Of a stretch of 64,000 nucleotides of DNA, positions 1,675-46,351 are shown piece after piece. The stretch's first letter is position 1. Each line of letters begins with the position of its first letter. Under the pieces are notes generated by a model. The model made no database searches. It was not told the DNA's origin and saw nothing but the letters and a program-made list of their open reading frames with translations. The DNA is from Tieghemostelium lacteum (lineage: Eukaryota > Evosea > Eumycetozoa > Dictyosteliales > Raperosteliaceae): NCBI GenBank assembly GCA_001606155.1, contig LODT01000028.1:720735-784734 (forward strand), read 5' to 3'. The translations under genes were made by a program, and so were the position numbers.

Positions 1675-3272
1675 TTATAATAATTTTTCCCAATTGTAAT
1701 ATTGAACATCACTGATATTACAATTCCATTGTTTTCCAGTAATATTTAAATTACCCTTTTCAAAGTTAATAGTCCAATAGTTATCTTGTTTCTTGTTAGT
1801 TTTCAAAACAATTTTTAGACCTGGGGTAGCTTCGATAAATGCTTCTAAAGTCATTGGATCCTTATTTCTGTCACAAATATTATTAGCAGCTCTATTTAAA
1901 ACTTCAGCCAAATATTCACCAATACTGTCTTTGGAGGAATCAATAAGAGGGTATACTTCCTCCAAAGATTGTTCATCAAGAGACCAACCATCATTTTTAG
2001 TACTTGATTTAATTCTATCTATAGATTCATCAATTTTATCCTTATTTTTTTTTAGATTAATTCTAGCATTTAAAGAATAAACTCCTGGGGTTGGTGTGAT
2101 ATTAGAAAGTTTAAAATATCTAATATCATTAATATTACAATTAAAATCTTTAAAAATTAATTGTAATGTACCATTATCCCATTGACATTTCCAATATCTA
2201 ATATATAAAAAAAAATATATTATTAATATCATTATAATAATTAATTTTAAATATTAATTACTTATACATTACGTTGAATCTTTTTTTATCAGTGTTTGCT
2301 AATAAAGTAATTTTACAATTTGTATTAGTTTTCAACAAGAGCTTCTTTAATTAATTCTTCTTTTGAACTTTCAGAAATATTAAAAGCAATTGCACCAGCA
2401 ATGTCTTTATAAAATGTTTCACCACAACTATTCTTTTGTGAATCAGTTGCTTTTTCTAATAATACAGCAAAATCAAATTCAATTTGCCATTCAACTCCCA
2501 ATGCAGTTTTAATTTTTTCCATTGCGGTTTTAAGATGTTCTTCATTATCACGTAATGATTTTCTAGCTATTTAAATATTTAAAATGTTAAAAAAATGTTA
2601 TATTGTTTTAATCAGATGATTATTTTACTTACCAGTTACACTTAATTGATTGATTGATTGTTGAGATGGTGAAAGTACTGGTTGTTGAACATTTGGTTGT
2701 TGTGGTGGATAATTTGGATATGCTTGAGTTGGATAACCTGGAATTGGAGTAGTTGGTTGACCTGGAATAGTTGGTGGAGTAGTTGGCTGACCATAACTTG
2801 CATATTGTTGTGGTGGGTATCCAGCATATTGTTGTGGTGGATAAGCTCCATATGGTTGTTGTTGTCCTGGTACTACCGGTGTTGTTGCTGTAGAAGTACT
2901 TGGAGGAGTACCTGTTGGTGGTACTGTTGGAGTAGTAGTTAGGGGTGTTGTAGTTGGTGGAGTAGTTGGTTGGCCTGGTACAACTGGTGTTGGAGTAGTA
3001 GGTTGACCATAACCTGCATATTGTTGTGGTGGATATCCAGCATATTGTTGTGGTGGATATGCTCCATATTGTTGTGGTGGATAGGCACCATACTGTTGTG
3101 GTGGATATGCTCCATATTGTTGAGGTGGATAGGCACCATATTGCTGAGGTGGATAGGCCCCATATTGTTGTGGTGGATATGCTCCATATTGTTGTTGTTG
3201 TTGTTGTGGTGGATAAGCACCATATTGTTGTGGTGGGTAAGCACCATAAGGTTGTTGTGGTGGTTGGCTCAT
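1675..3272 (-). CDS. YGAYPPQQ-repeat protein with a duplicated C-terminal domain
   Basis: I do not recognise the family. Predicted exons: 2633-3272, 2262-2566, 1675-2197, all with GT-AG borders. The start at 3272 gives MSQPPQQPYGAYPPQQ, which skips an in-frame upstream ATG that would add an unlikely poly-Phe stretch. The N-terminal ~190 residues are a Gln/Pro/Tyr low-complexity region built on YGAYPPQQ octapeptides plus Thr/Pro spacers. The C-terminal ~290 residues contain two copies of one alpha+beta domain: each has a helix around GETFYKDIAGAI or GEYLAEVLNRAA, then strands ending in a CNINDI- or CNISDV-type motif. No signal peptide or membrane segment is seen. The three exons sum to one base more than a multiple of three. 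The frame breaks after ...EALVEN in exon 2, at an A run near 2335, while the protein similarity continues in the next frame. This is a one-base indel or sequencing error. About 488 residues if continuous. Confidence 0.7.
3018..3262 (-). repeat. tandem 24-bp coding repeat (YGAYPPQQ units)
   Basis: About nine or ten near-identical 24-nt units, read on the minus strand as YGAYPPQQ or YAGYPPQQ, interrupted by one glutamine run. A shorter second block lies near 2800-2860. Similar Tyr/Pro/Gln octapeptide tails occur in annexin VII-like and other low-complexity proteins. Unit number is likely to vary between strains. Confidence 0.85.
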
Positions 3273-3423
3273 AACTGATTTTTGGTCTTTTAAAAAATAA
3301 AAAAAAAAAAAAACTTTCAGATTTTCCATTTTATCGAATCATAATCAGATATTTTTTAGTGATTTTTCTCAAATCTCACATTTAAAATGCAAGAAATAAT
3401 ATATTATTTGAAAAATATAATTT

Positions 3424-22960: not shown

Positions 22961-24271
22961 TTAAAAATATACAAAAGGTAATAAAAATTCACCAGAATCA
23001 AAGGATTGATATTCATAACTTGTAGTTTTGGAAAAGGTATAGAGTTTCATACGATTTGAGTCGGTATCATTTACTTGAGAGCTACCAGGTACTTTTGCAT
23101 TAATGACAACAGTACATGAGTAAATTGAATCTTCACCTAGTTGTTCAAATTGTGAGAGATTAGATTCCTTGTTATAAAATGATGCACGAAGTATAAATCC
23201 ACCAGCAACTGTTATACAAGGAGCTGAGTTTATTCCAACATCTGGGAATTGGAAATCAATTTCCGGTGTAAATGGTAATGCAATTTGTCTGAAACTACTA
23301 CTTGGATAACCATTGGCAGAGTCACAAACACTGAATGCAACACCAGGTTTATCAGTTCTTGAGAATACAGCTAGAAGTATAGTTCCATTTGAATTGTGAT
23401 TTCTTGCAATTGTTGGTGATCCTACAAAATTAACACCGGAACTTAGGTAATTCATGTTATGCCACATACCATAATTGGAATGATCATTTAGATTAGCCCA
23501 TGTGTAACTTAGATAGGCTCTAGAACCTCCTGTGTATTTGGCAAATAGCCAACTTGTGGCGTTACTATATCCTATACATGGTGACCCTGACCAATGACTT
23601 CCCCAGTTATCCCAAATAGTTTGACCAACTTGAGTTTCATAGAGTTCAATAAAACTGTTATACATCTGACCAGAGTCTGTAATTACAGTTGCTTGACAAA
23701 ATTCACAATTGGACTCTGAGTTGATAGCATAGAGTCCTTGGACCGCATTTGCATTTCCAGGTAATGATGAAGATACAACAACACGACTGTTACTAGAATT
23801 CAAATAAGCAATGGTAAACATGGATCCGTAACATCCAACAATAGCAGGGAACCCATAACTTGTATATACCATATGAATCCCACTAGTCATTTGAACATTA
23901 ATTGGCATTGGTGTAGTCCAAGATGCATTGGTAACTGATGTATCAATTAAACTTACTGATAGATTACCATAACTGTCACTGTACACTGACCATGCCTTCT
24001 TTTGATTCTTCATATAGAGTGCTGCAATTTTGTTTCCTTGGTTATCATAGGTTACAGTTCTCTCTGATCCACTTGATGATGCTCTGGTATTAATCTCATC
24101 AGTAGAAGATTCTCCATAGTATGGATCTGGCATTTGCTCTGGACTTGGTTTAACAGTAGTACTTACTGGTATATCAATTGTTTGGTTAGATAAATCACCA
24201 GTATTTGGGTCTCTAGGATAAGAGAAATTTAATACTAAATTGGTATTTTGAAAGAATTTGGTATTATCCAT
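22961..24271 (-). CDS. hypothetical protein with propeller-like repeats (paralogue A)
   Basis: A single exon of 436 residues; function not recognised. After a variable ~75-residue N-terminus the protein is beta-rich, with recurrent blades marked by GSPCIG, GSPTIAR and SAPCITVAGG motifs and regular aromatic residues. This resembles a beta-propeller of the PLL/fucose-lectin kind, by eye only. There is no signal peptide or membrane segment. It is clearly paralogous to the divergently transcribed gene at 24613-25947: both share QG-Y-x-N, W-NWG or WYDWGN followed by GSPCIG, and NGYPSS-F or DGYPSTLF. The 341-bp shared spacer points to an inverted duplication. Confidence 0.8.
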   Translation of the reverse strand: MDNTKFFQNTNLVLNFSYPRDPNTGDLSNQTIDIPVSTTVKPSPEQMPDPYYGESSTDEINTRASSSGSERTVTYDNQGNKIAALYMKNQKKAWSVYSDSYGNLSVSLIDTSVTNASWTTPMPINVQMTSGIHMVYTSYGFPAIVGCYGSMFTIAYLNSSNSRVVVSSSLPGNANAVQGLYAINSESNCEFCQATVITDSGQMYNSFIELYETQVGQTIWDNWGSHWSGSPCIGYSNATSWLFAKYTGGSRAYLSYTWANLNDHSNYGMWHNMNYLSSGVNFVGSPTIARNHNSNGTILLAVFSRTDKPGVAFSVCDSANGYPSSSFRQIALPFTPEIDFQFPDVGINSAPCITVAGGFILRASFYNKESNLSQFEQLGEDSIYSCTVVINAKVPGSSQVNDTDSNRMKLYTFSKTTSYEYQSFDSGEFLLPFVYF

Positions 24272-24612
24272 ATTATTTGTATCTATAATTTATTAAGTTT
24301 TAATCAATATAATGATAATAATTTTTTGTTTTTAATTCTTAAAATTAATAATTTATGATTGATTAGATATTTTACACTTTTCAAGTAAAAAACTGATTTA
24401 GGTAGAGTTTTTAAAAAAATTATATGATCATTTAAATTTTTTAAAATTTGTGAACATGTTTGAATTTCTAAAGAAATTATAATCATGATCCAAACCGATA
24501 TTGGTCAGAATCCAATCTATCTAGATATTTTCTTCAATCAAATTAAATTCTATTTCTTTTTTTTTTTTGTTAACATAAACATATTTATAATAACTATACA
24601 ACAATAATAAGA
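24272..24612. promoter_or_regulatory. shared divergent promoter of the propeller-like pair
   Basis: A 341-bp AT-rich spacer between two head-to-head paralogues. It contains T/A runs but no motif I can name. A short minus-strand reading frame here (24304-24486) has biased composition and looks spurious. Confidence 0.4.
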
Positions 24613-25947
24613 ATGTTAAAAAAGAATTTAATATATAATAATAATAAAATTAAATTATATGAATCAAAACCAATTGATGAAAGTAACCCAAATTTTCATT
24701 CATTGACCATACCTGTGAATAGTAGAGTAAAAGAGTCACCACCACCATTGGAAGGTGAGGAAGTTAAAGTTGAATCACCACCAGTTAATGTAGTGTCTTC
24801 TGCTTCATTAAAGAAGACAGCTTCTACAAGTGCTGCTGCTTCTGCATCTAATAGTACCACCAGTGACAATAATGGTAATAAATCCTGTGCTCTATTTAAT
24901 TATGATGATGAGACTGCATATGCTGTATATACATCCTCTAGTGGAACATGTACTCTGATAAAATGTCCAAATACCACCATGGTTTGGTCATCACCACAGA
25001 CTCTATCAGGGTTCAGTATTGTAAGTATTCCACATATGGTATTCACAGGTAATGGATATCCAGCTTTGATAGGTGCCTCTACCAATCAGATTATTGTCAA
25101 ATATCTTGGTGTTGGTGGACACAATGATTTGGGTATCTCCATGGCATTTCCAAGTGGTACTACAAGCATCCAAGGTATCTACGCATACAATGTAATCGAC
25201 AGTGATATGGCACAAGTTGCTATAATCGACCAAAGAGGTAAACTCCTAACCAGTTACTTTTCATTTGAATCCGATAAAGTTATGGCAACCTCTTGGTATG
25301 ATTGGGGTAACGGATGGCAAGGTTCACCATGCATAGGATCAAGTGACCATACCCTATGGTTCATTGCCAAAAACATTAGTTCATCCAGACCAAAGTATTG
25401 TTATAGTTGGTGTTATATATCCGATCCCACAAATTATGGTAGATGGCGTAACATGAATCTATTACCAGTCAGTGATTTCATAGGTTCACCAACCATCTGT
25501 CGTTCATCATCCATGGACACACACCACTACTCTGGAATCTACCTTACATTTTTTTCTAGAACCAATAACAATAGCATAGCATTTGCACCTTGTTCATCAC
25601 CTGATGGTTATCCCTCAACTTTATTTCAAGAGCAATTTATCGGATTTCCATTGGAAATGGATCTTCGATTCCCAGTACTAGGTGTAAATACCTCACCATT
25701 TGTTACCATGTCCAATAGTAATCTACTAGTTTCAGGATACAAAATATCCGCTAAGGTATTGGAAAGTTTTCAAGTTGTCAACCCTAATGATACCTTCCTT
25801 TTTGCAAGTTCTGTTACTTTTCCAATCTTTCAAAGTTCAAATTCAATTGGTGTCTACAGAACCAAGTGTTTTTTATTCCTTAAAACATCTTCTGGTTCAA
25901 ATTTAACAGTTGATTATTCCACTGTCATTCTTCCTCAATCTCAATAA
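24613..25947 (+). CDS. hypothetical protein with propeller-like repeats (paralogue B)
   Basis: A single exon of 444 residues, the head-to-head paralogue of the gene at 22961-24271. The N-terminal ~90 residues are low in complexity (Ser/Ala-rich, KKTASTSAAASASNS). The rest follows the same blade pattern (WYDWGNGWQGSPCIGSS, DFIGSPTICRSS, VNTSPFVTMSN). Identity to the partner is moderate and confined to the repeat part, so the duplication is not recent. No catalytic motif is seen. A lectin-like or protein-binding role is possible, but nothing in the sequence decides it. Confidence 0.8.
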   Translation: MLKKNLIYNNNKIKLYESKPIDESNPNFHSLTIPVNSRVKESPPPLEGEEVKVESPPVNVVSSASLKKTASTSAAASASNSTTSDNNGNKSCALFNYDDETAYAVYTSSSGTCTLIKCPNTTMVWSSPQTLSGFSIVSIPHMVFTGNGYPALIGASTNQIIVKYLGVGGHNDLGISMAFPSGTTSIQGIYAYNVIDSDMAQVAIIDQRGKLLTSYFSFESDKVMATSWYDWGNGWQGSPCIGSSDHTLWFIAKNISSSRPKYCYSWCYISDPTNYGRWRNMNLLPVSDFIGSPTICRSSSMDTHHYSGIYLTFFSRTNNNSIAFAPCSSPDGYPSTLFQEQFIGFPLEMDLRFPVLGVNTSPFVTMSNSNLLVSGYKISAKVLESFQVVNPNDTFLFASSVTFPIFQSSNSIGVYRTKCFLFLKTSSGSNLTVDYSTVILPQSQ

Positions 25948-33382: not shown

Positions 33383-35254
33383 TTATTTTTTAAGGTATTT
33401 AAAAATTACAAAGGATGCAATGGAAATTAATATAGTTGATGTTACAATATATTTTGTGGAGGTTGGTATGAGTGATTGTGGTTGGTTTTCTTTGACAAAG
33501 GTATTATAGTTCTGTAGATACTGTGGTACTTCCACTGGATATTTTTGATTTAGATTTTTAATTTTATCTATAAAGTATTGTGCTCTCTTTTTGTTACCCA
33601 ACATGTAAAGACTTTTGGCAGAATAGAGGTATTGATCAATAACAACTCTATCGTACAATTCACAGACTCTGATACTTTGTGCAGCGTAATGTAATGATTC
33701 TTTATAGTTTCCTAAAAAGAAGTAGTTTTTACAGATATAGTAAAGCGCACTAGAGTACTCTGGTTCTTTCTCATCAGAAACCTTTTCTAGAGCTTCTTGG
33801 AATACTTCTATGGCCTTTTCATGCATTTTCAAACGTTCATAACACAGAGCAATCTTAATTATTGCATTGGAAACCAGAGTGGGATTCAAATCCATTTTGG
33901 CTTTGATGTGGTACACTTCATTCATTTGGATATAGAGTTTAAGGTGTGTTATTGCTTCTTCATATTTGGCAATTTTTTCATTGATTTGAATATCAGCAAT
34001 TCTCAAATGAGCAATAATTTCAATGTACTCACCAGAGCCTTTGAGAATATCCAGTGCTTCTTCAGTCCATTTCAAACCCTTCTCAACTTCTTGATATGAG
34101 TTGTAAATAACTCTGGCACATACCAACAAGATTCTAGCCTTTTGAACATCATTAAAGTATTCCTTACTGTGATGGTAATAGAAAAGGTGTCTAGTTAGCA
34201 AAACATCTTCGAACTCACTCAATGTTATGGAATATCGACCTGTTATAATCAAAAAGTCATTTAAATATTCTTTTTGATCTTCTATTACATTTCTGAGTAA
34301 TTTACAAGCACTTCTACCGGGCACTATAATAGTAGTATCATTGAATTTTTTAAAGATTTCCCAGAAGCCAAAATAACACATAGTACTAGAGAATATCTGT
34401 ACATCTTTTGCATGTAAACCTTGATTTTGGGCCATTACTTGAAGCCAGTGATAATATATAGAAAATGGTGCAAACCAACAATAGGTAGAAAGAAGTCTTT
34501 CATTGGAATATTTACCAGATTGGAAATCTTGTAAAATCAATCTAGCTAACTCCAGTTGAGCTTCTTCTTGATGAGATTGAAGATTCTCTAAAAGAGTATC
34601 AATAGCCTCTGTCTGGATAGTGTTAATGTATCTTGACAGCATTTTACTGAACAATGGATTACCTTTTGTAACCTCAATGGCTTGTGTCATTTGAGCATCT
34701 GTCAACTCTATTTCCAAGTACTCTCTAAATAGTTGTTTACGATTGTCATCCGACTCAATATTACCCAACTGATAGTGGGTGATATGCTTGAGTTCTTTGA
34801 ATTCTTGAGATCTTATGAATATAAAATGATGATCATTTTCAATGTTTTTACAAGACTCTTCATCTATAGGTAACTGTTCTGATAACTTTTCATAAATCTC
34901 AGCATCAGGGTGTTGAGCTAGACAATGTACTACAACCAATATCTTTTCTTTACATGTCATAATGTATTCCTTCAAACTATTATATTTAGTTCTATCTTCA
35001 GCAGGTACTTGAAGGAATACATTATACATACATGTACTACTATACTCCAAATCCGAATATTCAAATATATTTTCATATTCCTTAACCTCATCAGATTTCA
35101 TTAAATGACGCACTAAACTGTATTTACCAGTGCCATCACCACCCTGAATGACCACGCATTTCTCCCTCTTTAAAATATCTTTTATATCTTGAATCTCTTT
35201 ATCTCTACCAACTAATTTCTTTTTAAAGAACTCATTTGATGTAGTTTCACTCAT
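33383..35254 (-). CDS. tail-anchored STAND-like P-loop NTPase with helical-repeat region
   Basis: A single exon of 623 residues. The order is: a short N-terminus with VGRDKEIQDIKDIL, typical of AAA/STAND ATPases just before the P-loop; Walker A GGDGTGKYS, where the residue after the lysine is Tyr rather than Ser/Thr; a possible Walker B region around KEKILVVVHCLAQH; then about 350 residues of helices with TPR-like signatures (KIALCYERLKMHEKAIEVFQ, YYICKNYFFLGNYKESLHYA). The last 22 residues form one hydrophobic helix with a basic end (FKYLKK), a classic tail anchor for ER or mitochondrial outer membrane. There is no signal peptide. STAND NTPases with TPRs serve as signalling or immune switches in other organisms. 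The substrate and trigger here are unknown, and the altered Walker A may weaken ATPase activity. Confidence 0.65.
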   Translation of the reverse strand: MSETTSNEFFKKKLVGRDKEIQDIKDILKREKCVVIQGGDGTGKYSLVRHLMKSDEVKEYENIFEYSDLEYSSTCMYNVFLQVPAEDRTKYNSLKEYIMTCKEKILVVVHCLAQHPDAEIYEKLSEQLPIDEESCKNIENDHHFIFIRSQEFKELKHITHYQLGNIESDDNRKQLFREYLEIELTDAQMTQAIEVTKGNPLFSKMLSRYINTIQTEAIDTLLENLQSHQEEAQLELARLILQDFQSGKYSNERLLSTYCWFAPFSIYYHWLQVMAQNQGLHAKDVQIFSSTMCYFGFWEIFKKFNDTTIIVPGRSACKLLRNVIEDQKEYLNDFLIITGRYSITLSEFEDVLLTRHLFYYHHSKEYFNDVQKARILLVCARVIYNSYQEVEKGLKWTEEALDILKGSGEYIEIIAHLRIADIQINEKIAKYEEAITHLKLYIQMNEVYHIKAKMDLNPTLVSNAIIKIALCYERLKMHEKAIEVFQEALEKVSDEKEPEYSSALYYICKNYFFLGNYKESLHYAAQSIRVCELYDRVVIDQYLYSAKSLYMLGNKKRAQYFIDKIKNLNQKYPVEVPQYLQNYNTFVKENQPQSLIPTSTKYIVTSTILISIASFVIFKYLKK

Positions 35255-35500
35255 ATTTTGGTTTTAGTATCAACTTTCAATGTTAACGTATCACTCTATA
35301 CTAAAAAAAAGTAGTTGAAAACTAGTGTCAAAGATGTTTTGCTGAAATATTATGTGTCCCCGCAAATTTCGCTGAAATAAAGAATTTCTAAAAATAAATT
35401 TAAATTCATACGCAAACATGATATCTCATTAGATCATACATCATTTTATTTTGATATTTATGTTACTGATAATAATGATGTCACAAATATAATTATTAAA

Positions 35501-38500
35501 TTATACCATGAATTGTCTTGTTTGAATGAATAGAGAGGATTGGGTGAGACCTTCCTTCTCTTTTTGTGATAATTCAGTCTCTGTATTTCTTTCAGTTGTT
35601 AAAGAGTCAAGTGGGAATAGATATTTATCAATTCTACAAAAGTGTTGATAATACACAGATTGACCATCAATCTTTCCATGATTAAAATAAAAATAGGAAC
35701 TGGTTTCGTCTAATTTTGGAATACTCTTAATGTGATTTGTTGATAGCATAGTATCACAAGGTATTGGTGTACTTAAATTATTATTATTATTATCATAAAC
35801 AATTTTATCTTGTTTTAATGTATCTAACATATTCAGAATTGTGTATGCTAGTGATGGTGGGATATGTGTAACAGGTAATCGATATTCACTAATAGAAAAA
35901 CCATTCTTTTTAGTACGACATAGATCGTATTTCAGTACTGGTAATTGACTGATAAGTTCTGCAAAGTCATTATTACCTAATCTTACAACTACCTGATCAG
36001 ATATCTTAATGAATCTATCAGAACTCTCTTTGACTGTGATTATACAACCTTTAAGAATATCACTAATGTCTGTTGAACTGACTTCAAAGTGAATCACATT
36101 GTTTTGGTATTGAATTTCCTTACAGAATCCTTGTAGAAAAGATTTTGAAACTTTCAAATAATTTCCAATAAAATAGTCTCTAATTTCAATCTTCTTAGCT
36201 CTTCTCAAGCAACTTGGACGGAAGAGGGCAATTGCTTCTTTAGAAATCTCACGAAGAATTCCATTGAGTAATAGATAGTATCTTTCTTTCTCATCTTTTA
36301 CAATTGTAGATCCTTCAATGGTAAGACCTTCACAAATGAAGTTTGGTGTATCTCTGTCAGTTGACTTTAAGGTAACTTTACTTTTTAGAACTTTTCTAGA
36401 GAATAAGTGGACATTATTAGTTACCTGGTGTAGTCTACTATCAAATACCACATAAATATGATCTCCAATTTCAACAAGTGATCCATTTCCTTTTATACCA
36501 TATATCAATGATGTATTGATATGTTGGAATGATATCATTCTAGCATAGATTCTTGTAAGGTTACCTCCACTCTCTTGATATAAATCCAATGATTCTTCAG
36601 TTGTGACCAATAGTGGTTGAATACAATTGTATAATGCTCCCATTGCCTTTGTAATTGATATCAATGGTACAATAAGATATTTTGAAATCTCACTATGATT
36701 TGTATTTTCAGATAGGTATTTTGGTAGGATATTAATATTGTCATGATACCATCCTGTACCAACACTATCACTTACAGTTCTATACAATCTATAGACTTTA
36801 ATAAACTCATTTACCAGATCTACATTATTTCTATATAACATGGTGATTTGAGCACTGAATTCCTTTAGATCTTTGAATAAATATTCATTGGTGATTTCAA
36901 GTTTCTCATAATCAATGAGACCAGTTAACATTTCTTTAAACCCAATACTGGATAGTAGTTGTTGTACTTTAGACAGGAGTTGAAGTTTAACAGATTCTTC
37001 AATGACAATATGCGATTCAATATCACTTGCAAAGGGAATTATGATTCCTTTTATCGAGTAAAGTGGTTGTTTTGGTTTGGATCCATTAATAGATCCGGAA
37101 CTCATAAACCAATTAACGGGATTAAATATCTTATTGGCTGTACTGGCAACTGTACTGGCAACATCTGCAACAGTTTCAGCAGCTTCAACTACAGTATCTG
37201 TGACTACATTGATGACTTTAGTGACAATACCTAACATACTATCACAGACATCAGATGCCAAATTATAAACTCCAATAAAAGCACCTTTAATAGACTCAGC
37301 TGAGAATTTACCAACTAACCAATCTTTTGCTTCATTTGCTGATTTTCCAATCCATTTACCAACACCACAAATGGCGTTGATATAGTTACTAAACTCTTTA
37401 CAAAGATAGTTACCGATATCACCAATAGCTTTGAATGCTGATAAAACCAAATCCTTCAAATTATTAACAATATAGTTAACAATACCTTGGAAAAGTGTGC
37501 TGAATGATCCAATTTTAATTTGGAAAGATGGAATTTTGATACTTAGCTTATTGAAGGTAAAATCCAAACCACCACTAATAGTAAGACCAGATGATTCAAC
37601 AAATACATTTAATTTACCATTAAGTCTAGTTGATACATTAATGGATGGGAATATAGTGGCACCAAAAACTGATATTTCTGGAGAACTAAAGTTTATATCC
37701 CACTCAATACTACTACAAAATACAAATGAAGTCTTTTGAAGTGCTGCATAGACTGATAATTTAAATTTATCACTTATTGACAATGTAGTGCTAATCATCA
37801 TACTAGTAGATGATATATTTGCTGTAAATGTAACTTGACATCCATAAAGGTAAAGTCCACCTGATATTGCAAATTTTACATTTTCAGGTTTAAGTTCAAG
37901 ATCAAAAGCAGCACCATTTTTAAATACACCATTTGGTAGAACAGATAGAATCTGATCTTCAGTTTTTTTAATTTCATCATTGGTTACACCTATAAATGTA
38001 CTATTTCCAAGTTTAAGATTTCCATTGAATCTGTCAATAGGAGTTAGGGCACCAGTTGCCTTGACACCAGAAATATCATAATGTACATACAAGTACAAAC
38101 CAAAATCACAAATGTAGGCTTCTAATTGACATGTAAAGTCCAACTTATTTTGAATTTTTCCACCTTTAATAGAGGCAGTTTTAAAGGTAATGTTTTTCAA
38201 GGTATCAGAAGATAAATCTTTAGAGAATATATCACGAATGATTCTCTCAAAATTGATATCAGTCACTGTAAATTCCATTCCAAAGTCACCTCCTACCAGA
38301 CTGAGATCTAGCTTACCTTTAATATAGGCTGGTGATTTTTCTTTAATCATAACCAAAGCTTGAGATGCTGATTGGTTTTTAACTGATTTTTGTAATTCCA
38401 ATGGAATGATATCAAATTGACCTTCCAATTTTACAGACTCTAAAAGGAGTGAGGGTAGAACAATCATGGAACCACCTAATGCTAGTTTTTCAATAAATAA

Positions 38501-41500
38501 CCAATCAATTGAGAATGGCTGTTTCCAATTTACAAAATCTAACTCTAGACCCATGGAAAGTCTACCAACGCTAATTGTACCTTCCATTTTACCTGAAATT
38601 TCAGGACCATCGATAATTATACCTGTAACTTGGAATGATAATGTTATAGATGTTCCTCTAAATGAAGTAGCTATGACAATGGATTTCAGTGCAAACACAT
38701 CACCAAAATAAATCATGGATTCGGAGCAATTATAAGAAGCTGATAGTTCAAATAAACCAGGTTTCTTTGCTAACATGAATTTCAATTCATCAGCAGCTTC
38801 TTGGTATTTGTCTTTTGGTGTAAGTTTCTGTCTCATTTCAGCAATTAGAGATGATTTACATCGAAGTGCTATTGCAGTGGTACCTCTAGTTAGTTCATAC
38901 TGATTTACAAATTTAATGAGATCAACATCTCCACATGATGTAAATAAACTGGATAGTTGTTTATCGTCTAATGAGGAGGAAGTGTGCATGAATTGTATAT
39001 CAAATTCATCTTTTAAAAGGAATGATAGAGATTTTAGAGGATTCACCATATCACCAATTAAATAAGGTGCATCTTCTGCATTTCCATTTGATGATGTTGA
39101 TGGATTGGAGTTTGGATTAAATCTAACCAAATTTAAATGGAATGAAAATAGGATGTTGATATTTTTGTTCAAGTATCCAATGGCGAACTTTAGAGCTTCT
39201 GTTGATGTAAAGAGAACTGCCTTCTTATTAGATGGGTCCAAATTCAAAAAAATTGACTGCAGAGAGAATTTATCAGTAATTTGGTTAAAGAATGTTGATG
39301 CATCAGTTGATTGGAAGTTAACAAGATCATGTGTGATTGAACTTGTTTTGATTGCATTATTACGATATTTGGAAACCAATTGCCATGTTGATTGATTGGA
39401 AATTGATTTTTTCTTTTCCAGAGTGAGTTCAACTACTTTATTACCGTCAATACCAATTTTACTAGCCAATGTAATTGTCTTCTCACCAGAGGAATTGTAT
39501 TGATAGCTCAATACAAATTGTGTCAATTCAAAATTAGTATTGAATATTTTGATTGGTTTGATTGATTCAATGATAACATGGAAGTAATTTATAACTTTTT
39601 TCTTGAAATCAATTTCCAAACCAATACTTGTTAGAGATAGAGATTCTAAGAATACTTTAATTTCATTTGGAATTCCTTCAGTTAGAGTACTACATTCTCC
39701 AATAAAGAATGTCAGGATATCCAATAGAGATGTAGTCTTATTAAGTTTTACAACTGCACTCAACTTTGACTGATCTTGTGATTGTAAAAATGAAACAAAT
39801 AAAATACCAATACTAGACATTGTTGAGCTTTTTTCAACAACTTTAGAGAATGAAAATGAACATGTAATCTTGGTCATTTTAAAACCACCAAAAATAGTAG
39901 AGTTTTCATTGAGGTGTTCGAAATTCACAACAGCATCATCCAAAATAAAAGTATCAGATAACTTTATGGGTTGGAATTGTAATAGACATTGTAGACCTGC
40001 ATATTTCTTGGTGGTTCTATGGATATAGATGGAAAAGAATTGTGGAATAAGTGATGAAATGTCACCTACAAATCCATTATCTTGAAAATTTACATTTTTA
40101 AATGGTGCACCTTCCATTACAGTGTCTTTTAGATTGTTGGTAAGAGTAGACAAGTTCATTTTGTCTTTGTCATGTTTATCTAATCTAAAATAGATTGCCG
40201 TACATTCACCATTAAGATTCATGTCAATTCCTACTTCCATATCCATTTTAGAGTTTAATTTGAATTGCCCACCAACTGAGATATTACTGAGCTCCAATTC
40301 ATCAGATTCATTGGATCTCTGCATTTCAATGGTCATTACAATGGAGGTCAATCTAATCATACTGAATAGTGATTTGGAGGTATCTACTGGTTGATATTTT
40401 CCTTTAACTCTTAGATAATCCACGTTGGAAATGGTTAATGGTGGACATGTGTTGGATGTATTTGAATTGATATAAGACCCCTCAAAAGATTCAATTATAA
40501 TTTCATTTAAAAATTTCATTGAATCAGGACTCTTGTAATTTAGGTTAGGAAATGCATTTACAATATCTGAAAATGTACTTCCAAGACCTGAAATTTCAGT
40601 TATAGTTGTAATTGCCTCTCCCAATTTAATGTTTCCAGGTACCAATTCAAATTGAATACCTCCTTTGGAAATTGATTTATATTGTAGTTGATATCCAGGA
40701 TTTACTCTATTCTCATTAGGAAATGATAATAGTGATGGTGTATCAGATCCCATAAAGGTACGGTATTGAAGTCTATCTACACTCAAGTCTGGTGAAATTG
40801 TATTTTTGAATATTATATTTGATGGTGTAACATTGGCGGGTGTTGGTATTACCATAGGTGGTTGTAGAGGTGGTACTGAAGCTGGTGATATTCCTAGTAT
40901 TATAGGTGCATATTTCTTGTCTTTATAAGTGGGTTGGTTATAAAGGATAATTCTCTCACCAGAGTTTTCGAATAGATCATTTTTTCTATAATTAAAAACA
41001 CCATCAGCATCCTTAGTATAGAAGGTTGGATATGACAATATCCATGGTTGTTTTTTATCTTTAATATTTAATAAACCGGGTGCAATGTGACAATCAGTAC
41101 CAGGTGAAGATGCAAAGATAAATCTAGTTTGGTGGTGAAACCAAGTTAGAAAATCAATTTGTGCTTTTTCTATTTAAAATAAATTTGTTAATATAATTTA
41201 TAAAAAGGTTTAAAAATGAATTTTAGGATAATCCTTTAGGATGAAATATTTACCTGTAGTATCTTTGTAAAGCTCTATAAGTAAAGCATCTGATGCAATT
41301 CCATTTCTAAGCGAGCCATGATGTGGTAATTGAAAACAGTCCCATTTCTCTACTAAGGTAGCATCTAGTATTAACTGACGATATTCATTTGCAATAGGGT
41401 CACTTAAATCCAAACCTTGTTGTACTTTATAATTAAAGAACTTATTATATGCCATCTCTGGAGTTGTGATATTATATTTACATCTAAGTAGATGAAATTG

Positions 41501-42295
41501 TAATGCATTTCTAGGTAGAAATCTAATATAATCTAATACCATATCAATGACAGAGTCACCAGTGAATACATAATGATAGTCATTTTGCATAAAGACTGTA
41601 ATGATAGATGCCTTATTTTCATCAGAGCCATCAATAGTAGTCTTTTTTAGTCTTTCCAATAGTTCATCTTTTGCTACAGACTGAGCAACCACAATACTAC
41701 TTGGTATAGGTAACAAATCTGGTGTACCATACTGAAACTTGTTATCGTTTTTATAGTTTGATGTTAAATACAATGTGATACTAGGTAATTTAGAGGTATT
41801 ATATTTATCCCATTTTCTCAATAGAATTTTACCATCAGTCAAAATGAAAACGGATCTAGATGCATCTTCATCAATTTGATCTGGTTCTGGGTTTTTATCA
41901 AAAAAGAATTTCTTAATATCAGTAAGAAGAGTTTTCTTAGTTGATCTAAGTGTGGTACCATGTGCAAAGAATTGTAAATCTTCAAAATAGGTTTTGTCAG
42001 TGTCATCGTTAATCTTGACAAAACTATCTAAACCACCACTATGATCACCATCCAAATGTGACAATATCACACCAATGAGTTTGGAATCTTTTGATTTTAT
42101 AAGAATGTGGTCTAGCACTTTTGAGATGTTTATACTTGCTGATTTTAAACCAGAGTCTAAAAGAACATAGTCAACACCACCCTTTATATTCTTTCTAATT
42201 GGTAACAGTAAACAATCACCACCACTCGCAGATGTTAAATTAGTAGTTTCTCTACCCCAATCAATACATATTGGTGCAGTTAATGGAATATCCAT
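35501..42295 (-). CDS. giant protein: ComEC-type metallo-beta-lactamase fused to a ~1,900-residue beta-rich region
   Basis: Two reading frames are joined by one 84-bp GT-AG intron (41170-41253). The join closes exactly in frame: 1,042 + 5,669 nt gives 2,236 residues. Residues 1-370 are a metallo-beta-lactamase fold with SHLDGDHSGG (metal ligands), VFTGDS and LPHHGS, the spacing of the ComEC/Rec2-type hydrolase domain. After the intron the fold finishes (HHQTRFIFASSPGTDCHIAPG) and a very long region follows. It contains repeated beta-strand segments of similar style (LSLTSIGLEIDF, GGLYLYGCQVTFTANIS), a central helical/amphipathic stretch (VVEAAETVADVASTVASTAN) and a C-terminal globular part. 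There is no signal peptide or clear membrane helix. I cannot name the long region; large bacterial DUF6603-type proteins look similar by eye, untested. The substrate (nucleic acid or other phosphodiester) is unknown. Confidence 0.75.
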
Positions 42296-42750
42296 AAATT
42301 AGTTATTATAAAATATTCTTTTTGATTTGATGTTGCATTTGTTCTTTTTTTTTCTTGACCTCTGATTACGAATTCACAATAGTTTTTTTAAAAGAATGAT
42401 CACAACACAAATCACATTTCGACAATTTCAATATCGATTCTGACATTTTCAAAAAAATCCAAAGTTTTAAAGTGTTATCTAGATTTACATGTCAGATATC
42501 GATTAGATTAGATGCATTTCTTTGTTTTTATGAATTCACTAAAACCAAAATAGATTTTTTTTTTACTTGTCAATAAGGAATAGATAATTACCAATTCTAA
42601 AAAATACTCAGAATTACCGACAATGTTTCCATGATTAAAATAAACTTAGGAAACCTAGTTTTGTCGCAAAATAAACTAAAATTTTTTATTATATTATAAT
42701 CAAAATCACTGATTTTTTTTTAATTTCCATCAAACCTTAAAATTGATAAA
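42296..42750. other. divergent upstream region, no gene
   Basis: A 455-bp AT-rich spacer between the MBL-fusion gene (-) and a small membrane-protein gene (+). Nothing beyond homopolymers was recognised. Confidence 0.4.
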
Positions 42751-43044
42751 ATGACATATTTACATATAACAAACACCTTTTTTAAATCAGCACTTATATT
42801 ATCTCCTTTGTGGTGTATATTTTTAATATGCTATCCTTTATTCATGACATGGGCACCACCACATCATTTTAAATTTGTAAAAAGATGCATAATATCTACC
42901 ATATCAACACCACTTTTGATGGGCTTAGCACTGTATTATCAGTCTAAAACCTTGACTTTTAATATTTATCTTTCATCATTACCAATTCTACCTTTATTTG
43001 TTTACTATAGAAATGTAAAAAAGATTGGTAATCCCAACTTCTAA
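42751..43044 (+). CDS. small multi-pass membrane protein
   Basis: A single exon of 97 residues with an ATG start and a stop before an AT-rich 3' region. Three hydrophobic segments are visible: FKSALILSPLWCIFLICYPLF, CIISTISTPLLMGLALYY and IYLSSLPILPLFVYY. They are separated by short basic loops (FKFVKRC), and the protein ends in a basic tail. I do not recognise a family. The length and even codon use support a real gene, but a protein of this size could be a chance frame. Confidence 0.55.
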   Translation: MTYLHITNTFFKSALILSPLWCIFLICYPLFMTWAPPHHFKFVKRCIISTISTPLLMGLALYYQSKTLTFNIYLSSLPILPLFVYYRNVKKIGNPNF

Positions 43045-43414
43045 TACACACCACACACATTATTTTTAACCTAAAATTTGTTTTTATTTTCATAGATTAT
43101 CTTTAATCTACCACATTAAAACAATATTGAGACTTTAATTACATTATTTATATTAACTATTTAAAAACTGTAGATAAAATTTAAACCAAACAATCTAAAT
43201 TATATAACAGTTTAGATTTAACAATAAATCCGGAAAGAGATAAAACCATTAATCTTTGAATAAACATATATGTGCTTAATTAAATAAACTACTAATCTAG
43301 TTATTTTAAAACACTCTAACATTTTAATCTTTTTAAATTCTATTCTATTCTATTATTTCTAAAAGTTAAATATTCAAAATTTGATTTCTAAATTAATAGG
43401 TTAAAACACAGAAA
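43045..43414. promoter_or_regulatory. upstream region of the first type III PKS gene
   Basis: 370 bp of AT-rich DNA with oligo-T tracts. No recognisable element beyond the usual homopolymer-rich dictyostelid promoter structure. Confidence 0.35.
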
Positions 43415-44551
43415 ATGACAACAGGTGATTCTGAAATTAAAAATCCATTCATTTTGGGTATGGGTACTGCTAACCCTGAAAGATACATTACAGCAAAAGA
43501 ATTTCATGAAAAGATTGGAGCTCCTTTTCTTATTCAAGAAGAATACTTAAAAAAAACAGAAGAAGTGTATCCCAAGATTGGTGTTGAAGGTAGACATTTT
43601 GGAAGAGATTACACATTGACTAAAACTAGTTATCCAGTGAGAGCACTCCAGAATATTGAGCAGGTAAATAACGAATATATTGGTTTTGCAATGGATATAA
43701 GTGAGAAATCATGTTTGAAAGCCGTTCAAGATTGGGGTGGTAACCCAAAGGATATAACTCACTTTGTTACTGCAACTTGTACTGGTCAAATGGTTCCTGA
43801 TTTGAACGCACGTTTGATTCCTATACTTGGTCTAAATGATGATATTAACAGAGTATCCTCAAATTTCAATGGTTGTTGTGCTGGTTTGACAACCATGAGA
43901 ATTGCAGCTGATATAGCTAGAGCTAACAAGAACTTTCGTCTCTTAGTGTTATGTACAGAACTATGTACACAACAAATGTCCTTAAGTGCTGAATTTGATC
44001 AAGTCATAACATCATACCTCTTTGGTGATGGTTCAGCTGCTTATATAATGGGTTCTGAACCCAAAGAATCTGAGAAACCTTTATATGAAGTCCTTGGATC
44101 ACATACCAAAATTATTCCAAATACTCAGAATCTTTTGAAATTTGAACTTGCTGTACAAGGATGGTCTATGACTATTGATCCTATGATTCCACCTACCATC
44201 AGCACCAATGTTCAAGGCTTCCTAAATAAAATGCTTGAAGAAAAGTGTAATGGAAACAAACTACCAACTGACTTAGTTGCTGAATGTGAATACTTACTTC
44301 ATCCAGGTGGTCCAGGTATTCTTAAAGGTATTTGTAAGTCATTAGGTATCACTGATTATCATGCACGTCACTCATGGCATGTCTTAAAAAAATACGGTAA
44401 CATGTCTTCTGCTACAGTACTCTTTACCATGAACAGTGCAAGATATGATAAAGTTGCTAAACCATATTCAATCAGCTTTGCATTTGGTCCTGGACTGGCT
44501 GTTGAAGGTATAGTACTAAAAAATCATTTCATAAATAATACAAATATATAA
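43415..44551 (+). CDS. type III polyketide synthase, free-standing (copy 1)
   Basis: A single exon of 378 residues, the normal length of a chalcone-synthase-type homodimer. It has the complete catalytic triad in family context: nucleophile Cys in NFNGCCAG, His in LLHPGGPGI and Asn in KKYGNMSSA. The SYLFGDGSAAY block and the closing FGPGLAVEG loop are also present. Such enzymes condense malonyl-CoA onto a starter CoA or acyl chain. In D. discoideum the known type III PKSs are C-terminal domains of the giant Steely hybrids (differentiation-signal and related polyketides). Here there is no fatty-acid-synthase part upstream; the preceding DNA is non-coding for 370 bp. A second copy follows 672 bp downstream. 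The product cannot be deduced from sequence. Confidence 0.92.
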   Translation: MTTGDSEIKNPFILGMGTANPERYITAKEFHEKIGAPFLIQEEYLKKTEEVYPKIGVEGRHFGRDYTLTKTSYPVRALQNIEQVNNEYIGFAMDISEKSCLKAVQDWGGNPKDITHFVTATCTGQMVPDLNARLIPILGLNDDINRVSSNFNGCCAGLTTMRIAADIARANKNFRLLVLCTELCTQQMSLSAEFDQVITSYLFGDGSAAYIMGSEPKESEKPLYEVLGSHTKIIPNTQNLLKFELAVQGWSMTIDPMIPPTISTNVQGFLNKMLEEKCNGNKLPTDLVAECEYLLHPGGPGILKGICKSLGITDYHARHSWHVLKKYGNMSSATVLFTMNSARYDKVAKPYSISFAFGPGLAVEGIVLKNHFINNTNI

Positions 44552-45223
44552 AAAATTGTTTTTTAAGGATAAATCTTTCAAATAAATTCATTATTATAAT
44601 GTATTATGAAGTTATCAGAATTATTTTAATTTATACCAATCTTTAAAATTCTTGAATATTAAAAATATTGCCAAACATAGATAGATTCTAAAATTTTTTT
44701 ATTTAAGTCTAATCCCATATCAATAATAATAATTACTTTATTTTTAAATAATTAAATAATAAGAATTGGTTATTAAGATTGATAAATCAAAATAAATAAG
44801 ATGTGAGGTTGTACAGATATTCTATTAGTATATTTAATATGTAATTTATATTACACTATAAATTATAATGAGAAAAAATAATAAAAATTTTATTCTTCAA
44901 ATGGTGGTTTAGATTGGTTTTTATTTTTAGATGATTAATAAACTATATACAATGACATTTATTATAAATTATTAAGTAAGATTTTAAATCAGCCTGTTGA
45001 AATAAAATTATTGTCAAAATTTGAAAATTAATATATATTATTAATCAAAAATAGTGAGTTTGTGTATATCTAATCTATATTCATAGTTTGATAATAATGA
45101 GTTTTTATAGGTTAAGATTTACTCCTTTTTAAAAGAATATTTAAAACATAAATTAAAAAATTCATTCTAATTAACCAAATTACTACTTATAGTATTATTA
45201 ACATAATTTAACATTATTAGAAA
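44552..45223. other. spacer between the two PKS genes
   Basis: 672 bp of extremely AT-rich DNA with no reading frame, tRNA or repeat recognised. It must contain the terminator of copy 1 and the promoter of copy 2. Confidence 0.4.
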
Positions 45224-46351
45224 ATGACAATTCAAATAAATGAAGGTAATCCATTTATTCTGGGTATGGGTATCTCCAACCCAGATAACTACATTACAAC
45301 TGAAAAGTTTGATGAGACCATTTCAAAATATATTGTAGCAGACGATATGGTAGATAAAGCAAAAGCATTGATAAATAACATTTGTATAGAAGGTAGACAT
45401 TTGTCAAGGGATTTCACACACATAGACAGTAGCTATCTATTGAGAAGACACCAAACCATTGGCGAAGTGAATAAAGTGTACATTGTCGATGCACTTAAAC
45501 TAACTGAGATTTCATGTTTGAAAGCCATTCAAGAGTGGGGTGGTAGTCCAAAAGATTTAACTCACTTTGTTACTGCAACTTGTACTGGTCAAATGGTCCC
45601 CGATATCAATGTCCAATTGATCCCAACACTTGGTTTGAATGAGGATATTCACAGAGTATCTTCAAATTTCAATGGCTGTTGCGCTGGTTATACAACCATG
45701 AGAATAGCAACTGATCTTGCAAGAGCAAATAAAAATCATCGTGTTCTTGTATGTTGTACTGAACTTTGTTCTCATCAGGTACCAACAAGTAAGGATTTTG
45801 ATATTGTTATTGCATCATTTCTTTTTGGTGATGGTTCAGCTGCTTATGTAATGGGTTCGGAATTAAGAGAAAATGAGAAACCTCTATTTGAAGTTATCGG
45901 TACTCATACAGCTGTTCTTCCAAATACTCAACATTTAATGACATACGCTATAACAAGTATAGGTTGGGACATGCATCTTGATCCTTTGCTTGGACCAACA
46001 GTTTCTAAAAACTCTAAAGAATTTATTAGAAAGATGGTTGAAGAAAAGTGTAATGAAAATGCAATACCAACAGATTTAGTTGGTGAATGTGAGTATCTAA
46101 TACATCCAGGTGGTCCAGGTATAATTAGAGGTATTTGTAAATCATTAGGTATAACTGAACAGCATGCACGTCATTCATGGAATATCTTAAAGAAATACGG
46201 TAACATGTCTTCTGCTTCTGTACTCTTTACCATGAACAGTGCCAGATACGATACAGTTGCTAAACCATATTCAATTGGTATTGCAATGGGTCCAGGCCTA
46301 GTAGTTGAAGGTGTAGTACTAAAGAACCATTACATGAATAACAATAATTAA
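45224..46351 (+). CDS. type III polyketide synthase, free-standing (copy 2)
   Basis: A single exon of 375 residues, tandem paralogue of the gene at 43415. The same triad is present (NFNGCCAG, LIHPGGPGI, KKYGNMSSA) with FLFGDGSAAY and MGPGLVVEG. The two copies agree closely around the active site but differ strongly at the N-terminus and in the central 220-290 residue region (MTYAITSIGWDMHLDP against LKFELAVQGWSMTIDP), the part that shapes the starter and cyclisation cavity. Different starter preference is therefore likely but inferred. Both are intronless and on the same strand, so a simple tandem duplication explains the pair. Confidence 0.92.
   Translation: MTIQINEGNPFILGMGISNPDNYITTEKFDETISKYIVADDMVDKAKALINNICIEGRHLSRDFTHIDSSYLLRRHQTIGEVNKVYIVDALKLTEISCLKAIQEWGGSPKDLTHFVTATCTGQMVPDINVQLIPTLGLNEDIHRVSSNFNGCCAGYTTMRIATDLARANKNHRVLVCCTELCSHQVPTSKDFDIVIASFLFGDGSAAYVMGSELRENEKPLFEVIGTHTAVLPNTQHLMTYAITSIGWDMHLDPLLGPTVSKNSKEFIRKMVEEKCNENAIPTDLVGECEYLIHPGGPGIIRGICKSLGITEQHARHSWNILKKYGNMSSASVLFTMNSARYDTVAKPYSIGIAMGPGLVVEGVVLKNHYMNNNN

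What the first reader, a model, noticed from the sequence alone, without database searches (positions are those of the whole stretch)
35501..42295. 2,236-residue fusion of a ComEC-type metallo-beta-lactamase to an unknown beta-rich giant
Two frames that would be annotated as separate genes join through a perfect in-frame intron. The hydrolase keeps HLDGDH, GD and HHGS. The partner is ~1,870 residues of repeated beta segments with a central helical region and no family I can name. ComEC-like hydrolases act in DNA uptake in bacteria, but no membrane channel is present here. This is the strongest candidate for an undescribed system in the window.
Basis: partly seen in the sequence, partly recalled or inferred. 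Interest (0 to 1): 0.7.

Follow-up and report, generated by a model that had tools for sequence, protein, structure and literature searches.

The report
Amoeba nuclease-like enzyme fused to giant
An amoeba gene joins an enzyme domain that looks like bacterial DNA-cutting (DNA-uptake and anti-virus) enzymes to a huge protein of unknown kind, and some bacteria keep a similar enzyme gene right next to a different giant gene, which hints at a shared but unstudied system.

Summary
One minus-strand gene of 2,236 codons (exon 1 42295-41254, 84-nt GT-AG intron, exon 2 41169-35501) joins a ComEC-class metallo-beta-lactamase (MBL) hydrolase to ~1,840 residues without a named family. Two tandem paralogues in the same genome (2,608 and 2,620 aa, 29% identical) have the same architecture, an intron at the same site and phase, and the metal motifs. 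The intron lies inside the hydrolase, so exon 2 alone would be incomplete. It is not ComEC: no membrane channel, and motif II-IV spacing 163-166 fits stand-alone bacterial MBLs (140-216), not ComEC-like frames (77-89). It is not DUF6603 by any sequence test made. Yet 4 of 14 bacterial DUF6603 loci examined have an MBL gene directly upstream, and the amoeba hydrolase profile, run on 398 Pseudomonadota genomes, lists two such MBLs first, the second in a tie. The giants themselves show no significant similarity. Most likely: a nuclease-type hydrolase held on a large scaffold or sensor, perhaps a domesticated bacterial two-gene module. Nuclease activity, fold and defence role are inferred, not shown.

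The parts
41254..42295 (-). Exon 1: hydrolase domain, residues 1-347 (ATG at 42295)
   Evidence: Pfam Lactamase_B E 8.5e-5, PADLOC LmuA E 8.3e-15
41170..41253 (-). Intron, 84 nt, GTAAAT...AAATAG, phase 1
   Evidence: same site and phase as intron 3 of both paralogues
35501..41169 (-). Exon 2: end of hydrolase, linker and giant partner, stop codon 35503-35501
42041..42058 (-). Motif II HLDGDH (residues 80-85), the HxDxDH form
   Evidence: H, D, D, H conserved in 3 of 3 paralogues
41555..41560 (-). Motif IV GD (residues 246-247, FTGDS)
41312..41323 (-). HHGS motif (residues 325-328)
41087..41101 (-). GTDCH (residues 371-375), last hydrolase motif, encoded by exon 2
   Evidence: G, T and H invariant in 3 of 3 paralogues
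35504..41026 (-). Giant partner, about residues 396-2236, no named family
   Evidence: no family; paralogues 29% identical over the whole protein
37121..37519 (-). Central helical stretch (about residues 1565-1697)
   Evidence: helices, mostly pLDDT 50-63, in an otherwise poor model; weak matches to phage tape-measure coils

Best explanation
One gene of a social-amoeba-like eukaryote encodes a protein without membrane spans whose N-terminal ~395 residues are a metal-dependent MBL-fold hydrolase of the ComEC/anti-phage nuclease class, most likely a Mn-dependent DNA phosphodiesterase. Its motif II-IV stretch is about 80 residues longer than in ComEC, as in stand-alone bacterial MBLs, and it has some 50 further residues between motif IV and HHGS that none of the 21 bacterial MBLs compared has. 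A proline-rich linker joins it to a ~1,840-residue giant that I take to be scaffold, sensor or gate. Proposed mechanism (inferred): the giant holds the hydrolase inactive or places it on a target until something foreign, such as DNA of ingested bacteria or a virus, is met, and the hydrolase then cuts. The architecture parallels bacterial loci in which an MBL gene directly precedes a DUF6603 giant, and the hydrolase is probably related to some of those MBLs. Shown: the in-frame join, its conservation in three paralogues, intact motifs, spacing, and the bacterial gene pairs. Inferred: splicing in the cell, nuclease activity, gating, defence role, bacterial origin.
For: Same architecture and same intron in three paralogues. 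Motifs conserved 3 of 3, window 34% identical to the others. Profile ranking: PADLOC LmuA > PDC-M48B > RTasMBL > Avs1a (LmuA in 3 of 3 paralogues); NCBIfam Avs1a 1.4e-9, ComEC/Rec2 0.015. Motif II-IV spacing 163-166 against 140-216 in 14 stand-alone bacterial MBLs and 77-89 in 4 ComEC-like frames. ComEC's C-terminal domain is a Mn-dependent nuclease whose motif II has Asp for one His (PMC8579336, passages); related anti-phage MBLs are gated DNases (PMC12799240, passages). The amoeba hydrolase profile hits 5 of 398 Pseudomonadota genomes; the first two listed are MBLs next to DUF6603 giants. MBL directly upstream of a DUF6603 giant in 4 of 14 loci. Between paralogues A and B dN/dS is 0.43 overall and 0.12 in the giant's core. 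Precedent for an anti-phage domain taken over by Dictyostelium: TirBCD (PMC13142454, preprint, passages).
Against: No activity, expression or structure data; both AlphaFold models were useless (mean pLDDT 37.5 and 34.0). The giants show no significant similarity to DUF6603 proteins; reversed controls score as well. The hydrolase tree leaves the amoeba group on a long, unresolved branch. The DUF6603-linked MBLs of Streptomyces clavuligerus and Embleya were not matched by the amoeba profile at E <= 1. G262 and G191 giants are 97% identical, so the two count as one lineage. Three of the 5 hits lie in ComEC-sized frames (761-778 aa), one tying with G191; a LmuA-type MBL outranks G191. dN/dS is 0.78 in the hydrolase (14 synonymous, 40 nonsynonymous changes) and 0.93 in the next 400 residues, much weaker constraint than in the giant's core. 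No protease was found among the few neighbours scanned.
Confidence: 0.42

Rival explanations
1. The hydrolase is not a nuclease but a metabolic MBL, for example an esterase or thioesterase acting on a small molecule, with the giant as scaffold.
For: Two type III polyketide synthase-like genes lie near the window gene (43400-44551, Pfam; 45221-46351, by resemblance); the bacterial MBL-DUF6603 locus of G191 and G262 has a ketoacyl synthase (Pfam) and, by reading only, a reductase and a carrier protein upstream. MBL folds include a phosphorylcholine esterase (PMC8579336).
Against: Motif II is HxDxDH; the curated profiles that rank first belong to defence MBLs. No polyketide synthase was seen beside the C30 paralogues in 6 of 7 neighbour frames scanned over 40 kb.
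Confidence: 0.22
2. The giant is the working part and the hydrolase is a decaying or non-catalytic leftover.
For: dN/dS 0.78 for the hydrolase against 0.39 for the giant and 0.12 in its core, paralogue A against B.
Against: The metal motifs are kept between the window copy and paralogues A and B, which share only 34% of hydrolase residues with it.
Confidence: 0.17
3. An AVAST-like pair: the hydrolase-giant works with the neighbouring STAND ATPase with TPR repeats at 33383-35263.
For: Same strand, ~240 bp downstream; TPR matches and a sub-cut-off nSTAND3 match; AVAST type 1 has an MBL protein (model name) and AVAST is built on STAND ATPases (PMC12799240, passages).
Against: The STAND protein gives 13 matching stretches in the genome, itself included, and none is on C30 where the two paralogues are.
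Confidence: 0.06
4. Two separate genes, no splice.
For: No transcript data; each frame is long on its own.
Against: Shared intron site and phase; the hydrolase motif GTxxH is in exon 2; the first Met of exon 2 is at residue 105 of its translation, past conserved sequence.
Confidence: 0.03

Closest known systems
LmuA / Avs1a / DRT-associated MBLs of anti-phage systems
   Same: HxDxDH, GD, HHGS; long motif II-IV stretch; best curated profile matches
   Different: Scores far below the Avs1a cut-off (37 of 420 bits); no partner protease seen; fused to a giant; extra insertion between motif IV and HHGS
ComEC C-terminal domain
   Same: HxDxDH form of motif II, GD, HHGS
   Different: No membrane channel; motif II-IV spacing about twice as long; ComEC/Rec2 profile only E 0.015
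Bacterial MBL gene + DUF6603 giant gene pairs (G262, G191, Streptomyces clavuligerus pSCL4, Embleya NBC_00896)
   Same: MBL directly before a giant, same strand; the G262 MBL is the first hit of the amoeba profile, the G191 MBL second (tied) in 109
   Different: Two genes, not one; giant carries DUF6603, to which the amoeba giant has no detectable similarity; the Streptomyces and Embleya MBLs are not matched by the amoeba profile
DUF6603 (PF20248)
   Same: Giant proteins that can stand beside an MBL
   Different: No match by profile, profile-profile or pairwise tests; the positive control between bacterial DUF6603 giants worked

Membership tests
MBL superfamily | Lactamase_B profile above its cut-off | tested here: met
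   23 bits against 22.7, E 8.5e-5: barely
MBL superfamily | Metal-ligand motifs II, IV and HHGS | tested here: met
   3 of 3 paralogues
ComEC/Rec2 | Membrane channel in the same protein | tested here: not met
   No convincing transmembrane segment in 3 of 3 paralogues by hydropathy
ComEC/Rec2 | Equivalog profile TIGR00361 above cut-off | tested here: not met
   13.4 of 190 bits
Avs1a / LmuA anti-phage MBL | Family profile above curated cut-off | tested here: not met
   Avs1a 37.2 of 420 bits; LmuA 52.7 bits, E 8.3e-15, the PADLOC listing gives no cut-off
Avs1a / LmuA anti-phage MBL | Long stretch between motifs II and IV | tested here: met
   163-166 residues; 14 stand-alone bacterial MBLs 140-216, one of them (L043) a doubtful GD call
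Gated nuclease-protease pair | Adjacent trypsin- or caspase-like protease | tested here: inconclusive
   None in three window neighbours and six of seven C30 neighbour frames; other window frames were only read, not scanned
DUF6603 (PF20248) | Profile match in the giant | tested here: not met
   None up to E 10; hhalign none, control E 2.2e-59
AVAST type 1 | Conserved STAND partner | tested here: not met
   None of 13 STAND-relative stretches lies on C30, where both paralogues are
All of the above | DNase activity | not testable with these tools
   -

The most novel reading that the evidence does not exclude
MBL plus giant is a general, undescribed conflict or DNA-processing module: bacteria carry it as an MBL-DUF6603 gene pair and amoebae as a single fused protein, acquired by horizontal transfer, intron-bearing and duplicated. 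The amoeba giant would be a diverged or replaced DUF6603-like scaffold that gates the nuclease in cis instead of by a protease.
Probability: 0.22. Interest if true: 0.78.

Novelty: new variant of a known kind. Interest (0 to 1): 0.5.

Why it matters
MBL proteins resembling the ComEC nuclease are now known as gated DNases of bacterial immunity (PMC12799240, passages), and Dictyostelium has taken over at least one anti-phage domain family (PMC13142454, passages). A fused amoeba MBL-giant with a bacterial two-gene parallel could add a second case, put a first functional hypothesis on DUF6603 giants (no paper in the searched library names DUF6603), and offer a tractable host to test it.

Tried and rejected
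DUF6603 membership: Pfam to E 10, own-genome profile search (controls silent), hhalign of the amoeba proteins against bacterial giants (one search used a wrong option; 48, 71 and 84 did it locally), BLASTP/phmmer with reversed controls, and a module profile built by hand from bacterial N-termini. In one search the real amoeba proteins score 1.2-1.6 bits against at most 1.1 for their own shuffles and reversals, while some reversed bacterial giants score up to 11.9: not significant. A caution: the N-terminal half of an MBL-linked bacterial giant was itself not found in the long DUF6603 giants, so a missing match does not exclude remote kinship. A by-eye resemblance (24 residues at 50% with an Embleya giant, E 0.93) was dropped.

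Internal repeats of the giant: profile windows against each other, best probability 1.8%. Structure: two single-sequence AlphaFold jobs (and 95/111), mean pLDDT 37.5 and 34.0; no fold search was run on them. Phage and plasmid tblastn with window proteins: none in plasmids, only E 0.2-0.3 to phage tape-measure coils for the giant (the hydrolase was not run on phages). PDB by sequence: hydrolase none to E 1, giant none to E 10. Viral contigs: none (77 with a bacterial MBL). Genome contigs: first scan nothing, second one Pseudoxanthomonas locus, used as a taxonomic entry point. P8_CR capsid match in paralogue B (E 3.6e-4, below cut-off) judged chance. Giant profile in 398 Pseudomonadota: none, without a positive control. 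Hydrolase tree unresolved.

Full report
OBSERVATION. The two open frames exist as stated: 41210-42298 (-), 362 codons, and 35501-41173 (-), 1,890 codons. Removing 41253-41170 joins them in frame into 2,236 residues with one terminal stop. The intron is 84 nt, GTAAAT...AAATAG, 84.5% AT against 68.0% and 68.3% in the exons. One alternative acceptor six bases on also keeps the frame.

The strongest support for the join is comparative. The window lies in a 23.3-Mb, 43-contig genome; gene content and AT-richness suggest a dictyostelid, which is my inference and not a taxonomic result. That genome holds two further copies in tandem on contig C30. Modelled by me with GT-AG introns they are five-exon genes of 2,608 and 2,620 residues, 94% identical to each other and 29% to the window protein. 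Hydrolase and giant stand in the same order in all three. Intron 3 of both paralogues is phase 1, as is the window intron, and from it to the end of GTxxH there are 28 residues without a gap in all three; 6 of 28 are identical between window and A. The paralogues have three more introns that the window gene lacks. Read without splicing, the paralogue frame runs HHGM; spliced it is HHGS. Since GTxxH is part of the hydrolase, exon 2 starts inside the hydrolase; the first methionine of exon 2 is at residue 105 of its translation. Two independent genes are therefore very unlikely.

THE HYDROLASE. Pfam Lactamase_B matches at 23 bits, just above the cut-off of 22.7. The best curated matches are models of anti-phage systems: PADLOC LmuA E 8.3e-15, PDC-M48B 1.3e-8, DRT-associated MBL 1.4e-6, Avs1a 5.5e-5, and NCBIfam Avs1a 1.4e-9 (named an MBL-fold hydrolase); ComEC/Rec2 reaches only 0.015. 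That the PADLOC LmuA model describes an MBL is my reading of what it finds (HxDxDH and HHGS in its strong hits). LmuA is matched by 3 of 3 paralogues. No PDB sequence matches to E 1. Motif II is HxDxDH, the form in which Asp replaces one His, as in the ComEC C-terminal domain, a Mn-dependent nuclease (PMC8579336, passages seen). Spacings: from motif II to GD 163-166 residues in the three amoeba proteins, 140-216 in 14 stand-alone bacterial MBLs (frames of 325-509 aa; one value doubtful), 146 and 167 in two DUF6603-linked MBLs, 77-89 in four ComEC-like frames (so called from frame size, not tested by profile), 128 in one other. From GD to HHG it is 24-39 in all 21 bacterial sequences compared and 79-85 in the amoeba ones, so the amoeba hydrolases have an insertion of their own. 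In the anti-phage nuclease HamM, insertions absent from ComEC appear to block the active site until cut by a protease (PMC12799240, passages seen). Whether the amoeba insertions do this is unknown. A maximum-likelihood tree of 28 MBLs does not place the amoeba group (long branch, weak support).

THE GIANT. Residues ~396-2236 match nothing in Pfam to E 10, NCBIfam or PADLOC to E 1, or PDB sequences to E 10; PHROGs gives only weak matches (E 0.056 or worse), three of four to tape-measure proteins. There is no convincing transmembrane segment and no detectable internal repeat. Single-sequence structure models were too poor to use. Between paralogues A and B, dN/dS is 0.43 overall, 0.39 in the giant and 0.12 in A residues 823-1622, but 0.78 in the hydrolase, 0.93 in residues 423-822 and 0.62 at the C-terminus: the giant's core is the most constrained part, which counts somewhat against a purely enzyme-centred view.

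BACTERIAL PARALLEL. DUF6603 was found in 9 of 398 Pseudomonadota genomes. Separately, the LmuA profile rang in 229 of 398, and two of its places, in G262 and G191, proved to lie directly upstream of DUF6603 giants. I then scanned 14 DUF6603 loci for MBL frames with a model of 23 bacterial MBLs, none from such loci: all 9 and 5 plasmid records (of 8 found; Streptomyces clavuligerus, two Embleya, Paenibacillus, another Streptomyces). Not examined: three further plasmid records (two more S. clavuligerus, Gemmatirosa) and three further genomes matched (G470, G406, G650). Four of 14 have an MBL: G262, G191, S. clavuligerus pSCL4 and Embleya NBC_00896; in 4 of 4 its frame directly precedes the giant on the same strand. 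G262 and G191 giants are 97% identical, so this is three lineages, two of them Streptomycetaceae. The ten others showed none in the fetched flanks.

Is the amoeba hydrolase kin to these? A profile of the three amoeba hydrolases, run over the 398 Pseudomonadota genomes, gives 5 hits at E <= 0.001: G262 (9.6e-6) and G191 (1.7e-4), the two DUF6603-linked MBLs, head the list; G244 ties with G191, and G244, G067 and G353 lie in ComEC-sized frames. Among the fetched MBLs the G262 one again ranks first (8.9e-8), a strong LmuA-profile protein (L039) second (1.2e-6), G191 third (1.3e-5). The G191 MBL and the amoeba alignment match over 78 columns, 29% identity, probability 89.5%. Against this, the Streptomyces and Embleya DUF6603-linked MBLs are not matched at E <= 1, and G262 and G191 are one lineage. 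So kinship is suggested, not proved.

The giants are another matter. Profile-profile comparison finds nothing between amoeba and bacterial giants, while the same method links two sets of bacterial giants through DUF6603 at E 2.2e-59. Using only the MBL-linked giants, or modules cut from them, changes nothing; reversed sequences score as well. The test has limited power: the N-terminal half of an MBL-linked bacterial giant was not found in the long bacterial giants either. Either similarity has eroded, or the amoeba giant is a different protein in the same role.

NEIGHBOURS. Downstream on the same strand is a STAND-like ATPase with TPRs (33383-35263), tempting because AVAST joins an MBL and a STAND protein, but it belongs to a scattered family (13 matching stretches with itself, none on C30). 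The C30 copies sit in a duplicated block with two ~1,000-residue genes each (a weak legume-lectin match in one); six of seven neighbour frames there were scanned. Two type III polyketide synthase-like genes lie upstream of the window gene beyond a small frame (42724-43044) with a sub-cut-off ER-lumen-receptor match.

MECHANISM. I favour a nuclease-type hydrolase held by a giant scaffold or sensor that controls it in cis, possibly in defence against foreign DNA. Shown: gene structure, conservation, motifs, spacing, gene pairs in bacteria. Inferred: splicing in the cell, DNA as substrate, Mn, gating, defence, horizontal origin. The precedent for transfer is Dictyostelium TirBCD, related to a bacterial immune protein (PMC13142454, preprint, passages seen).

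NOVELTY. DUF6603 is named in no paper of the searched library. Searches around MBL, ComEC-like proteins, Dictyostelium, amoebae and anti-phage systems (listings, plus passages of the three papers cited) showed nothing on this architecture. The library lacks most subscription papers, and no eukaryotic sequence collection was available, so the spread of the fusion among eukaryotes is untested.

Noticed in passing
window 33383-35263 (-): STAND-like ATPase with TPR repeats and, by reading, a hydrophobic C-terminal tail; 13 matching stretches in the genome with itself, three in a row on C2.
   Followed up: partly
window 43400-44551 and 45221-46351 (+): Two adjacent type III polyketide synthase-like genes near the hydrolase-giant gene (first by Pfam; second by resemblance).
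   Followed up: partly
own genome C30:1180032-1201205 (L019-L021): Tandem block: each hydrolase-giant paralogue comes with two ~1,000-residue genes on the other strand; one has a weak legume-lectin match. Their N-termini reminded me, by recall only, of stonefish-toxin-type domains.
   Followed up: partly
L069:2159-6635, L034:2350-6786: The bacterial MBL-DUF6603 locus has a ketoacyl synthase (Pfam) and, by reading only, a reductase and an acyl carrier protein just upstream of the MBL gene.
   Followed up: partly
L035, L036, L037, L070, L071, L072: A second class of bacterial DUF6603 giants, open frames of 3,251-3,518 codons, without an MBL neighbour in the fetched flanks.
   Followed up: partly
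L080:8719-10914: The frame upstream of an Embleya DUF6603 giant holds a 257-residue segment twice, letter for letter.
   Followed up: no
window 22961-24289 (-) and 24574-25947 (+): Two neighbouring genes on opposite strands that look alike by eye; family not determined.
   Followed up: no
window 2625-3338 (-): Low-complexity frame of PPQQYGAY repeats.
   Followed up: no
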